A DNA stretch of 64,000 nucleotides from an uncultured Mycoplasmataceae bacterium (lineage in GTDB: Bacteria; Bacillota_I; Bacilli_A; Mycoplasmatales; Mycoplasmoidaceae): NCBI GenBank assembly GCA_947429165.1, contig CANEON010000002.1:124001-188000 (forward strand). The letters are read 5' to 3'. The notes under the pieces were generated by a model, which saw nothing but the letters and a program-made list of their open reading frames with translations, did no database searches and was not told the origin of the DNA. The position numbers and the translations under genes were made by a program. This document shows, piece after piece, positions 6,967 through 33,627 of this stretch (positions are counted from its first letter, which is position 1; the number at the start of each line of letters is the position of its first letter).

Positions 6967-7254
6967 ATGGCAAAGCCACTAACAAAAAACCAAATTATCA
7001 AGAAACTTTCTGAACAATCAGGAGTTGCTTCTAAAGACGTTAAAAACGTTTTAAACTGCTTAAACGAAATGGCTGTTAAAGAAGTTAAATCTAATGGTCA
7101 ATTCAGAATCTGTGATTTAGGTAAATTAAAACTTAGAAAACGTGCTGCAAGAACTATGAGAAACCCTCAAACTGGTAAACCAATCAAAGTTCCAGCTAAA
7201 AAAGTTGTTAAGTTCACAGTTGCAAAAGCTGTAAAAGAAAAAGTTGCTAAGTAA
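6967..7254 (+). CDS. hup: HU/IHF-family DNA-binding protein
   Basis: A small basic nucleoid protein that bends and compacts DNA. The 95-aa sequence keeps the HU layout: an N-terminal helical dimer region, a GKLKLRKRAAR strand, the RNPQTGKPI DNA-intercalating arm tip with its proline, and a Lys-rich C-terminus. It has its own promoter and a strong SD (AAGGAGAAAAAAAC spacing). It is followed by a hairpin terminator that forms part of the 64-bp repeat bordering the restriction-modification island. Confidence 0.95.
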   Translation: MAKPLTKNQIIKKLSEQSGVASKDVKNVLNCLNEMAVKEVKSNGQFRICDLGKLKLRKRAARTMRNPQTGKPIKVPAKKVVKFTVAKAVKEKVAK

Positions 7255-7269
7255 TTAGTAAATTAATTG

Positions 7270-7333
7270 ATTAATAAAAAGTCCAACACCGTGATTAAGT
7301 GTTGGCTTTTTATTTATAAAAATTTTAAATAAT
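7270..7333. repeat. 64-bp direct repeat, left copy (border of R-M island)
   Basis: Bases 7270-7333 are identical to 9525-9588. The unit holds a bidirectional terminator hairpin and, read on the minus strand, the last codons and stop of recU (YLKFL then TAA). Because recU itself uses the right copy, this left copy is the duplicated one or a partial donor end. See the findings for its meaning. Confidence 0.95.
7276..7311 (+). terminator. Rho-independent terminator after HU
   Basis: The stem CCAACAC/GTGTTGG (7283-7289 with 7299-7305) is flanked by an A-run on the left and a T-run on the right, so it can terminate in both directions. It lies within the 64-bp repeat. Confidence 0.9.
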
Positions 7334-7371
7334 TTATATAATCATCATCATGCAAATGATAATTTTATCTA

Positions 7372-7394
7372 ATATATATATATATATATATATA
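7372..7394. repeat. (AT)n dinucleotide tract at R-M promoter region
   Basis: Twenty-three bases of perfect A/T alternation lie between the left repeat copy and the methyltransferase leader. It is the longest such tract in the window. Its place in the only upstream region of the restriction-modification operon makes slippage-dependent promoter variation possible, though unproven. Confidence 0.8.
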
Positions 7395-7423
7395 ACGTTG
7401 TAAAAGGTTGTTATTTTATATAT

Positions 7424-7461
7424 GGAGGTAACTTCTAGTTTTTTTAACTAGAAGTTTTTTT
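7424..7461 (+). promoter_or_regulatory. Hairpin leader between ribosome site and methyltransferase start
   Basis: A perfect GGAGG (7424-7428) is followed by an 11-bp perfect stem (7430-7440 with 7446-7456, five-T loop), a T-run, and then the methyltransferase ATG at 7462. Folded, the hairpin leaves only about 6 unpaired bases between SD and ATG. Alternatively the stem plus T-run is an intrinsic terminator acting as an attenuator. An ATG at 7422 would also start a 9-codon leader frame ending at 7451. Confidence 0.65.
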
Positions 7462-8076
7462 ATGCAAAAAAGAGAGTATAAGAAAATTATTTCCAATCCT
7501 AAAACAACTAAAAATAATAAAACGTTTATAAACATGAATCACAAAAACGATGAATGTTATACAAGGAAATGTGAATCTGATAAATTAATTAAATTTTTAA
7601 TAAAAAACAAAGTAATTAAAAAAACTCAACGTATATGACTTCCTTTTAATGATAACGGGAGCAACATACATAAATCACTGAAAGAAAACGGTTTTAATAA
7701 TTTAAAAATAACAAACAAAGACTTCTACACCATTAATGATAAAGACTTTGACATTATTATTTCAAATCCGCCTTTTTCTGGAAGGAGTAAATTATTTACA
7801 AGGTTAATGGAAATAGATAAACCTTTTATATTGCTTCAACCTATCATGTTTTTTAATAACGGAACTTGCATAAGAATTTTAACAAAAAATGGAGCAAAGT
7901 TTGGTGGTATTTGTCCAAAAAACAGAATGACGTTTGAAAGAAATATGGGATTTTTGTTCCCAAAAAATAGCATGGGTTTTATTGTAAATGGCATTGAGAA
8001 AGAAAAAACAACTGCATTTTATTCTTTTTGACTTTGTTTTAAAACAAAGATTACAGGTTTTACTGATTTAGAATAA
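7462..8076 (+). CDS. DNA N6-adenine methyltransferase of the R-M island
   Basis: Predicted modification enzyme. The 204-aa protein has the amino-methyltransferase catalytic motif NPPF at residues 102-105, preceded by the hydrophobic strand FDIIIS. A WLPFNDNGSN element at 59-68 stands where family members carry a SAM-binding CPFD..S motif. It resembles small phage and EcoRI-type adenine methylases rather than the large C5 enzymes. In-frame TGA Trp codons (in IWLPF and FWLCF) show the donor also used code 4. The ATG lies directly after the hairpin leader, and the endonuclease follows after 1 base. The methylated site is not readable from sequence. Confidence 0.85.
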
Positions 8077-8077
8077 C

Positions 8078-9529
8078 ATGAAAATTAAACTCTTTAATAA
8101 AATAGGCGACACTTGTTTTAGAGTAGGAAATCAAATTAATGCATATCTTTCTTTCTCAAAATGATTTTTAAACTTTATACAAGAGAACAATGCCGAGCCA
8201 ACAGATAACGATTTTAAAAGATGAACAAAGGATTCTGGAATTTATGATTATGGATCAGATCAAACTAACAGATTAAATTTTGTAAAAAGAATTTGTATGG
8301 ACGTTTACAAAATTATTTTTAAAGATAACAATGGCAATTATTACATGAATATTAATGAAAAAAAATTAAAATATTCTTTGCTTAATACTTTATCCGATGC
8401 ACAAAACAACGACCAGTCTTGTGCCGCTTTTAAAGAATTGCTAAAGTTTATGGAGAAAAATCCTGAAAAAAATGATGCAAAAAAAATTTTTTTAGCATTT
8501 GCAATTTATGAAACTGGAGATGATTTCTCAAAAATGTATGATGATGAGAGAATTTTAGAAAAAGCCATCATTGAAAAGTATCCAGATAATGTCGATGTCA
8601 ATCTTATTTATAGAAAAAACTTTTATTCAAGAAAACCATCAAGTTATTTGAAAGAGATCTCAAATAGAATACTTCTGAATAAAAATAATTTTAATATTTC
8701 TTATGTTGAATTTAGAGAATTAAAAAAAACTTATTTAAATTCTTTCGATAGCCAAGAATCTTTTAACACATTTGTTCACTCTAATTCACTTATTGAGATA
8801 GCAAGAACCATAATTTTAAATTCAAAGAAGTCATTACTAACTGGAGATTATTTTGATTTATTTAATAGGGTAATGTGAGGTTTGACCCTTAGTAAATCAA
8901 ATGGTAAAAACACAGAAACATATCTTAACGAAAACATAGGAATAGACAAAAATAATAAATTTTATTTAAAAAACGAGCAAATAGAGCCAAAGCGTTTTCC
9001 TTATTCTGAAAACGAAATAAATATAATGCTAGAAAAAATTCAAAATGGTGATTATAGTTTTATAAATACAGATGAACACTTTTCTTCTTTGCCGAGAGCA
9101 GATATTGCAGAATATCTTGTAAATTTAAAATTTTGTTATTTATTAAAATTAACAATAAATGAAGCAAAAAAATTTGTTAATACGAATCTTGATGTTCTTT
9201 TTTATCCAACATCTCATGCAACCGGCGGAAAAGCTGATATGCTATACACAAATGATAAAATAAATATTAGTATTGAAACAACCATTCATAATACGTGCTC
9301 TTCTGTTTGTAATCATGAATCGTACCCGTGTATTTCGCATCTTGAAGAGTGTGAAAAACCAAAAAAATCGACTTGCCTGTTTCTAATTCAACCATTAGGT
9401 GAGCACGAAAAAATCAAAAGATGATTTGAAATAGTTGGAAAAGGAGTTCTTCAAGATTATCACAATAGAGCTTTTGAATTCAAAACTTTGAATTTTAAAC
9501 AATTAGCTGCTTTAACAACACTAAATTAA
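8078..9529 (+). CDS. AlwI-like type II restriction endonuclease
   Basis: Predicted partner endonuclease of 483 aa. The C-terminal third shows the AlwI-type PD-(D/E)xK core: an IAEYLVNLKF helix, PTSHATGGKAD (Asp387) and the following strand ISIETT (Glu400). AlwI-family enzymes cut a few bases from GGATC; shared specificity here is inference. The N-terminal part is probably the recognition domain. The start is 1 base after the methylase stop. At least four Trp codons are TGA. The stop codon (9527-9529) falls inside the right 64-bp repeat, so the reading frame ends in target sequence. Confidence 0.78.
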
Positions 9530-9588
9530 TAAAAAGTCCAACACCGTGATTAAGTGTTGGCTTTTTATTTATAAAAATTTTAAATAAT
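9525..9588. repeat. 64-bp direct repeat, right copy (border of R-M island)
   Basis: Identical to 7270-7333. It supplies the stop codon and terminator of the endonuclease gene and, on the minus strand, the last six codons and stop of recU. The repeat distance is 2255 bp. Confidence 0.95.
9531..9566 (+). terminator. Terminator after the endonuclease gene and recU
   Basis: Second copy of the CCAACAC/GTGTTGG hairpin with flanking A-run and T-run. It lies between the convergent endonuclease and recU genes, where a bidirectional terminator serves both. Confidence 0.9.
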
Positions 9589-10051
9589 CAATAATTCCAG
9601 GAAATGAAATTTCAATTTCTTTACAATTTCTAATAATGTATTCCATCTTCATTGTCTTAGATTTATTTGTTTTGATTCAGTTAAGAATATCAATAGTATT
9701 AATCATAAATATCTTATCTAATGAATTAAAGTACACGATCAAAAATGATTTAGCACCATGGTTCATTGCATTTATAAGATGTCTTAATTGATGTTCTTTT
9801 ATTAAATTTAAATTAAAGTTTGCATCGTTTGTTTGTTTTGTTTCAAATTCTATGTGTTGTGATTTATATACACCACAATAATCCACAAAAGATTTTGCTA
9901 ATAGTTTTCCAATTATTGTGTTAGCAGAAATATTTTTAACTATTTTTATAGGTAAATATCTCTTCTCAATAATTGCTATATTTCGATCGTAATAGTAAGA
10001 ATTAGTTCGATTAACTAATTCCTCTATATACATGCCACGATTGGCATTCAT
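9569..10051 (-). CDS. recU: Holliday junction resolvase RecU
   Basis: Structure-specific nuclease that cleaves Holliday junctions and works with RuvAB, encoded about 3 kb away. The 160-aa protein starts with the family signature NRGMYIEELVNRTNSYY. It keeps a DYCG catalytic aspartate, the FETKQT (E-x-K) motif and the QLRHL helix. One TGA Trp occurs near residue 125. The last codons and stop fall within the right 64-bp repeat, so the gene's 3' end was the insertion point of the R-M island, yet it remains intact. Confidence 0.93.
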
Positions 10052-32077: not shown

Positions 32078-32932
32078 ATGAAAATTATTGACGGTAAATT
32101 AATATCATCACAAATTTGTGAAGAACTAAAAAAAGAAATTGAAGAATTAAAATCAAAAAACATTACTCCTTGTTTAAAAATTATCCAAGTCGGTGACAAC
32201 CAAGCAAGTAATGTTTATGTAAGAAATAAAGTTAGACTAAGTGAAACAGTTGGAGTTAACACAACTGTTGACAAATTTCCTGAAACCATTTCTCAAGAAG
32301 AATTAATTAATGAAATTAAAAAACTAAATGAAGATAAATCTGTAAATGGTATTTTGGTCCAATTACCAATTCCAAAACACATTAGTGAAAAAGAAGTAAT
32401 TGAAGCAATTGATGAAGATAAAGATGTAGATTGCTTTAGTCTAACTAATGTTGGTAAACTATGAACTGCTAGAAAATCAGAAATTTATTTAAAACCATGT
32501 ACACCATTTGGTGTAATTGAATTAATTAAGCGTTCTGGTGTTAATATTTCTGGCAAAAATGCTGTTATAGTTGGAAGAAGTAACATTGTAGGTAAACCAT
32601 TAGCCGCATTATTATTGCTTGAAGATGCTACAGTTACTGTTTGCCATTCAAGAACAGCTAATTTAAAAGAAGTTTGCAAACAAGCAGACATACTAGTTGC
32701 TGCTGTTGGTAAAGCAAAAATGATTAACCACGAATATGTAAAAGATGGTACGATTGTTATTGATGTTGGTATTAACCGTGATGAAAATAACAAACTTTGT
32801 GGTGATGTAGATTTTGAAGATGTAAAAGAAATTGCTTCAATGATCACTCCAGTACCTGGTGGTGTTGGTCCAATGACTATCACAATTTTATTAAGAAACT
32901 TAATAGCTGTTACTAAATTACAAAACAAATAA
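32078..32932 (+). CDS. folD: Methylene-THF dehydrogenase/cyclohydrolase
   Basis: Bifunctional one-carbon enzyme interconverting methylene-, methenyl- and 10-formyl-THF. The 284-aa protein has the substrate lysine region YVRNK, the DKDVDCF motif, the Rossmann signature [10 protein letters not shown] and the C-terminal [11 protein letters not shown]. One Trp is TGA. It pairs functionally with fhs at 57146, which also makes 10-formyl-THF. Its stop shares one base with the ispD start. Confidence 0.95.
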
Positions 32933-33627
32933 TGATTTACGGATTAATATTAGCTGCAGGTTTAGGAACAAGATTAGGCTTAAATCGTCCTAAGGCCTTA
33001 ATAAAAATTGATGGATCTGAAATTTTTGTAGATCCAGCTTGTGCTTTTATAAGAAATAAACAAATAGATAAACTTTATATTGCTTGTCATCCTGGTTACA
33101 TTAATGAATATAAAAAAAGAGTTGATGAACTTAAAAAATGAAGTTGAAAAGGTAAAAATGTTGAATTAATTCTTGGTGATTTAAAAGGAAGACAGGAATC
33201 TCTAAAAAAATCTATAGAATATATTAAAAAAAATAACAAATTAAAACCTAATGATATTATTGTTACGCATGATTGCGCAAGAATAAATTTAACTGACAAA
33301 ATCTTAAATGACTCAATTGCAGTTGCAAAGAAACATGGTTATGCAACAGCGGCAATTCAATTAAAAGATTCTATTTATTCGTTTAAAGAAAATAAATATA
33401 TATCTAGAGAGCAAGTTTATCAAATACAAACTCCACAATCATTTATGTTTAAATATTGAAAAAATAAAGATTCAGAAAAATCTACAGACTTATTCTCTTA
33501 CCTAGGATTAAAATTAAAAAAACAAAATCTTTCTTTTGGTTCAATTGAAAATTTAAAAATAACAAACAAAGAAGATTTGAGAATAGTTAGAGAAAATAGT
33601 GATAAAGTAAAGTTTGAATATATCTAA
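32932..33627 (+). CDS. ispD: 2-C-methyl-D-erythritol 4-phosphate cytidylyltransferase
   Basis: MEP pathway cytidylyltransferase. The 231-aa protein begins with the nucleotide loop LAAGLGTRLGLNRPK (Lys21 binds CTP), has THDCAR at 112-117 (usually HDAAR), the acceptor-recognising KDSI and QTPQ at 166-169. A ribitol-phosphate cytidylyltransferase (TarI-like) shares the fold, but no teichoic acid genes are expected here and ispF lies 900 bases away, so IspD is favoured. Start overlaps folD by 1 base; the stop overlaps the convergent gene by 3 bases. Confidence 0.87.

What the first reader, a model, noticed from the sequence alone, without database searches (positions are those of the whole stretch)
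7270..9588. Restriction-modification island bracketed by a perfect 64-bp direct repeat
The methylase and endonuclease genes lie between two identical 64-base copies (7270-7333 and 9525-9588). The unit is the HU-recU intergenic terminator plus the 3' end of recU. Insertion therefore left HU, recU and terminators all intact. Insertion of R-M genes with long target duplications is known from Helicobacter, but there is no transposase here. The endonuclease even takes its stop codon from the right repeat.
Basis: partly seen in the sequence, partly recalled or inferred. Interest (0 to 1): 0.85.

Follow-up and report, generated by a model that had tools for sequence, protein, structure and literature searches.

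The report
Repeat-bracketed restriction-modification insertion in a mycoplasma
A two-gene DNA-cutting and DNA-marking defence system was inserted cleanly between two housekeeping genes of a mycoplasma-like bacterium, duplicating 64 bases of the target, and a close copy sits at the same spot in a more distant species, so the system has moved between lineages in a way already known from Helicobacter.

Summary
Two identical 64-bp copies (7270-7333, 9525-9588), the only two in the 710-kb assembly, bracket a 2,191-bp insert holding a small adenine methylase gene and an AlwI-family endonuclease gene, both open with TGA=Trp.

One relative (G026) from another clade carries the same island at the same junction. 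The island is 88-90% identical in DNA (dS about 0.57); flanking genes are 65-78% identical (dS above 1). So the island moved between lineages after they split. In G026 the left repeat keeps 18 bases resembling the recU end of the window's clade (17/18), not its own (13/18): a possible donor scar. More distant M-R pairs lie at three other loci.

No tyrosine or serine recombinase, rve or DDE_Tnp_1 transposase was found in the genome; RecA and ComEC were. Most likely: insertion with long target duplication, then RecA-dependent transfer through the shared terminator, as described for Helicobacter R-M systems. A well-documented new case of a known kind; excision and enzyme activity untested.

The parts
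6967..7254 (+). HU-family DNA-binding protein gene (95 aa), left neighbour, intact
   Evidence: ORF; PF00216 E=4.1e-26
7270..7333 (.). left copy of the 64-bp repeat: HU/recU bidirectional terminator plus the duplicated last 20 bp of recU
   Evidence: single copy at the junction in G029 and G032
7337..7342 (+). possible -10 box TATAAT of the R-M operon, just inside the insert; the -35-like TTTATA (7313-7318) would lie in the repeat
   Evidence: consensus scan only; chance matches are common in this AT-rich DNA
7372..7394 (.). (AT)11.5 microsatellite in the leader, the longest dinucleotide tract in the window
   Evidence: AT or CA tracts also precede M in G026, G003, G021 and G289
7430..7463 (+). 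terminator-like hairpin plus U-run between a GGAGGT motif and the methylase start codon
   Evidence: similar layout in G026, G003, G289
7462..8076 (+). methylase gene M (204 aa): small adenine-methyltransferase-like protein with motif DIIISNPPFS
   Evidence: phrog_799 E=7.4e-18; PF05175 E=2.3e-5, PF13651 E=5.6e-4 below cut-off; conserved in 4 genomes
8078..9529 (+). restriction endonuclease gene R (483 aa), AlwI family; stop codon inside the right repeat
   Evidence: PF09491 E=1.2e-7, above cut-off; conserved GGKAD...SIETT residues
9525..9588 (.). right copy of the 64-bp repeat: terminator plus the real recU 3' end
9569..10051 (-). recU, Holliday-junction resolvase, right neighbour, intact
   Evidence: PF03838 E=1.6e-40; found in 35 of 36 genomes of the genus

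Best explanation
A complete two-gene type II R-M unit (M then R) of the AlwI endonuclease family was inserted between the convergent genes HU and recU, leaving a duplicated stretch of the target (64 bp) on each side. Because the duplicate carries the terminator and the recU tail, no host gene or terminator was broken. The insert brings no recombinase of its own. The shared terminator sequence then acts as homology: incoming DNA with the island, as a linear piece or an excised circle, recombines at the single terminator of a cell that lacks it, probably through RecA and the resolvase RecU, possibly after DNA uptake. This put the island into the G026 lineage at the same junction, with a scrap of the donor-clade recU end left in the left copy. 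Recombination between the two repeats would delete the island and restore the empty site. Shown: the architecture, empty sites, transfer between lineages, intact genes under purifying selection. Inferred: the recombination route, the direction of transfer, loss by repeat recombination, and enzyme activity.
For: Exact, unique 64-bp repeat. G029 and G032 carry one copy at the junction; G035, G022 and G005 lack the insert. G026 has the same M-R pair between HU and recU with a 44-bp repeat, 43/44 identical. G000-G026 identity is 88-90% for M and R against 65-78% for flanking genes, switching at the repeats; dS is 0.55-0.59 against 1.05-1.6, dN 0.03-0.045; third-position test p=1e-22. The island is also less diverged than G000 is from its close relative G029 (p=2e-8). 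The left repeat tail of G026 matches the G000/G029 recU end 17/18 and its own recU end 13/18. More distant M-R pairs lie at other loci: near rpsD, near tuf and a tRNA, between rnr and smpB. RecA and ComEC are present; no Phage_integrase, Resolvase, rve or DDE_Tnp_1.
Against: No reads, so neither excision nor a circle was seen. A single crossover would leave one recipient-type and one donor-type terminator in G026, but both are recipient-type; this needs gene conversion, two separate crossovers, a second target duplication, or an unsampled donor. The donor-scar argument rests on 18 AT-rich bases. The M-R pairs of G003, G021 and G289 show no long flanking direct repeat, so the duplication is not a constant property of this family. 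The assembly is 92% complete, so a missed recombinase gene cannot be ruled out.
Confidence: 0.72

Rival explanations
1. The island behaves as a site-specific element: the terminator hairpin is an attachment site, and an unidentified recombinase supplied in trans integrates and excises the island there.
For: The same junction is occupied in two clades, and G025 carries a different insert of about 340 bp at this junction. The hairpin core CCAACACCGTGATTAAGTGTTGG is shared by donor and recipient clades.
Against: No Phage_integrase or Resolvase match in the genome. The duplicated length differs (64 against 44 bp). Related M-R pairs sit at other loci without this site.
Confidence: 0.12
2. The island is ancestral to both clades and was lost in the relatives that lack it; the repeats have been kept alike by gene conversion.
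For: The terminator is strongly conserved even between empty sites, so identity of the two copies does not date the insertion.
Against: Island dS of 0.55-0.59 against more than 1 in the flanks between G000 and G026, and lower third-position divergence than G000 against its close relative G029. Several separate losses would be needed.
Confidence: 0.04
3. G026 and the window's lineage each received the island independently from a third, unsampled lineage with the island at HU-recU, by ordinary homologous replacement with long flanking arms.
For: An unsampled donor would explain why both terminators of G026 are of recipient type. Island divergence (dS about 0.57) is too large for a direct recent exchange between the two sampled genomes.
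Against: High identity stops at the repeats on both sides, so no long homologous arms remain visible. It does not explain how the first duplication arose.
Confidence: 0.12

Closest known systems
Insertion with long target duplication of R-M genes in Helicobacter pylori (Nobusato et al. 2000, as described in PMC1643837, PMC3031569, PMC4978471)
   Same: An R-M unit lies between long direct repeats of target sequence; relatives have an empty site with one copy; no transposase in the insert.
   Different: Mycoplasmatales instead of Helicobacter; a bidirectional terminator is duplicated; the same island is found at the same site in a second clade with a possible donor scar.
HpyAII (HpyII) R-M locus of H. 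pylori, deletion and horizontal reconstitution at 80-bp flanking repeats (Aras et al. 2001, as cited in PMC7494987)
   Same: A type IIS R-M locus with flanking repeats of similar length; loss and regain through recombination at the repeats is the model proposed here for G026.
   Different: There it is reported as a working regulation; here it is only inferred from sequence. HpyAII has two methylases and an HNH endonuclease; here one small methylase and an AlwI-type endonuclease.
AlwI-family restriction endonucleases (PF09491)
   Same: R matches the family above its curated cut-off.
   Different: The distant AlwI-type loci read here in G054, G105 and G146 sit beside two larger methylase-like ORFs; the G000 group has a single small NPPF methylase, and R is only about 27% identical to that of G054.

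Membership tests
R-M insertion with long target duplication (Helicobacter type) | R-M genes bracketed by a long direct repeat of target sequence | tested here: met
   64 bp exact
R-M insertion with long target duplication (Helicobacter type) | Empty site with one repeat copy in relatives | tested here: met
   G029 64/64 and G032 63/64; insert also absent in G035, G022, G005
R-M insertion with long target duplication (Helicobacter type) | No transposase or integrase in the insert | tested here: met
   Insert holds only M and R; genome lacks PF00589, PF00239, PF00665, PF01609
HpyAII-type loss and regain by repeat recombination | Observed deletion and restoration through the flanking repeats | not testable with these tools
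   No reads or strains; only empty and filled sites in different species
AlwI restriction endonuclease family (PF09491) | Match above the curated cut-off and conserved candidate catalytic residues | tested here: met
   31.6 bits against a cut-off of 23.1; invariant D387, E400, T402 in five homologues
AlwI restriction endonuclease family (PF09491) | Cleavage at GGATC | not testable with these tools
   GGATC is not avoided in the window (37 seen, 36.3 expected), which says nothing firm about specificity
EcoRI methylase family (PF13651) | Match above the curated cut-off | tested here: not met
   19.8 bits against 26.4; better described by phrog_799 DNA methyltransferase
Site-specific integrative element | Encodes or is served by a tyrosine or serine recombinase | tested here: not met
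   None in a 92%-complete genome

The most novel reading that the evidence does not exclude
The R-M unit is a minimal mobile element that homes to the HU-recU terminator without any recombinase of its own: cutting of DNA in cells without the methylase, plus terminator homology, drives its capture at the same spot in successive lineages.
Probability: 0.08. Interest if true: 0.75.

Novelty: new member of a known kind. Interest (0 to 1): 0.45.

Why it matters
How R-M genes move without transposases has been an open question since the Helicobacter comparisons. This locus gives empty sites, a filled site and a second filled site in another clade with a readable scar, so the intermediate step (transfer through the duplicated target) can be examined in a minimal genome with RecA, RecU and ComEC but no detected recombinase of the families tested.

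Tried and rejected
A longer recU duplication hidden in the leader beyond 7333: rejected, alignment scores are no better than shuffles. Viral carriage: no relative of M found in viral contigs. Plasmids: only two distant M relatives, about 35% identical. The hairpin as a repeated genomic site: only the two copies exist, even with three mismatches. Rfam hits are chance-level. Structure models were weak (pLDDT 56 and 64); M resembles adenine methyltransferases only weakly (E=2e-3), the R search gave nothing usable. Motif avoidance was uninformative. Furuta et al. 2010 (PMC2853133) is not held.

Full report
Setting. The window is 64 kb of a 709,615-bp assembly in 7 contigs, 92% complete, from a bacterium that reads TGA as tryptophan. 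Named relatives that carry the same methylase are Mycoplasmatota MAGs, among them Mycoplasmataceae bacterium isolates, and a bacterium from goat reticulum.

Observation. The repeat is exactly as stated: 64 identical bases at 7270-7333 and 9525-9588, two copies in the whole assembly. It contains the terminator hairpin shared by the convergent genes HU and recU, and the last 20 bp of recU. The insert between the copies is 7334-9524, 2,191 bp. It holds a 128-bp leader, M (204 aa) and R (483 aa). R ends on the TAA at 9527-9529, inside the right repeat.

Gene content. R matches PF09491 (AlwI endonuclease) above cut-off; M is a small methyltransferase with an NPPF motif, best matched by phrog_799. 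Both have homologues in G026 (93% and 90% amino-acid identity), G003, G021 and the goat MAG (G289). M is far better conserved than R among these (69-74% against 36-44% for G003 and G021). The M-R pairs of G003, G021 and the goat MAG lie at three other chromosomal positions: beside rpsD, beside tuf and a tRNA, and between rnr and smpB (gene names from sequence recognition). Long direct repeats were not found around those three; G021 shows only a poly-T match.

Empty sites. In G029 and G032, the closest relatives by flanking genes, HU and recU are separated by a single copy of the repeat (64/64 and 63/64 bases). G035, G022 and G005 also have HU next to recU without an insert, while G025 has a different insert of about 340 bp there. 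The architecture therefore reflects an insertion and not an old arrangement.

Transfer. G026 groups with G025 and G035 by its recU tail and flanking genes, but has the same island between HU and recU. Along the alignment, identity is 60-80% in nearly all 200-bp steps of the flanks (one at 87.5%), 85-93% across the island, and drops again right after the second repeat. Synonymous divergence is 0.55-0.59 for M and R against 1.05-1.6 for six flanking genes; third codon positions differ with p=1e-22. The island divergence is also lower than that between the window genome and its close relative G029 (p=2e-8). So the island moved between these lineages after they split. dN of 0.03-0.045 in both genes points to purifying selection.

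Scar. In G026 the terminator is present on both sides in its own clade's form (44 bp, 43/44 identical). After it, the left copy continues with 18 bases that match the recU end of the window's clade 17/18 and its own recU end 13/18, before the island proper begins. The simplest reading is that the unit came from the window's clade and brought along the left-over recU tail. The evidence is short and AT-rich, so this direction is a moderate inference.

Mechanism. The insert has no room for a recombinase, and none of four major recombinase or transposase families was found in the genome, while RecA and ComEC were. The proposal is target-duplicating insertion once, then spread by homologous recombination in the terminator. 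The two recipient-type terminators of G026 do not fit one simple crossover and require conversion, double crossover, a second duplication or an unsampled donor. How the first duplication arose remains unknown, as in Helicobacter.

Leader. In the window, G026, G003 and the goat MAG, a dinucleotide tract is followed by a purine-rich ribosome-binding motif and a terminator-like hairpin placed directly before the methylase start; the folds are more stable than shuffles (z -2.3 to -3.2). G021 has a long CA tract and a terminator-like sequence further upstream. This could set or vary expression, but was not tested.

Comparison with the literature. The pattern matches insertion with long target duplication of R-M genes in H. 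pylori (PMC1643837, PMC3031569, PMC4978471) and the HpyAII locus, where recombination at 80-bp flanking repeats deletes or restores the system (PMC7494987). The primary papers were not read; they are known here only through these citations.

Verdict. Confirmed, and well explained as a new case of a known kind; the second copy at the same junction in another lineage is the most informative part.

Noticed in passing
7372-7463 and the leaders of M in L052, L058, L071: A dinucleotide microsatellite followed by a hairpin with U-run between ribosome-binding motif and start codon precedes the methylase in four diverged homologues; possible attenuation or phase variation.
   Followed up: partly
L055 (G025), HU-recU junction: A different insert of about 340 bp with a short minus-strand ORF sits between terminator and recU, so this junction received another insertion.
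   Followed up: partly
7290-7298 and 9545-9553; G022 in L057: The terminator loop CGTGATTAA is kept in G022 although the stem sequence differs; reason unknown.
   Followed up: no
7699-7721 and 33550-33572: A 23-bp exact match between M and a nucleotidyltransferase-like ORF (32932-33627); AT-rich, probably chance.
   Followed up: partly
L007, L089, L090: Distant AlwI-type endonucleases in other genera lie beside two larger methylase-like ORFs instead of the small NPPF methylase, so the pairing in the window group appears to be a separate arrangement.
   Followed up: partly
L058:6412-7531: Downstream of the G003 M-R pair lie two similar short ORFs (MARQYKITKATY... and MARRYKITKATY...), a local gene family next to another copy of the R-M unit.
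   Followed up: no
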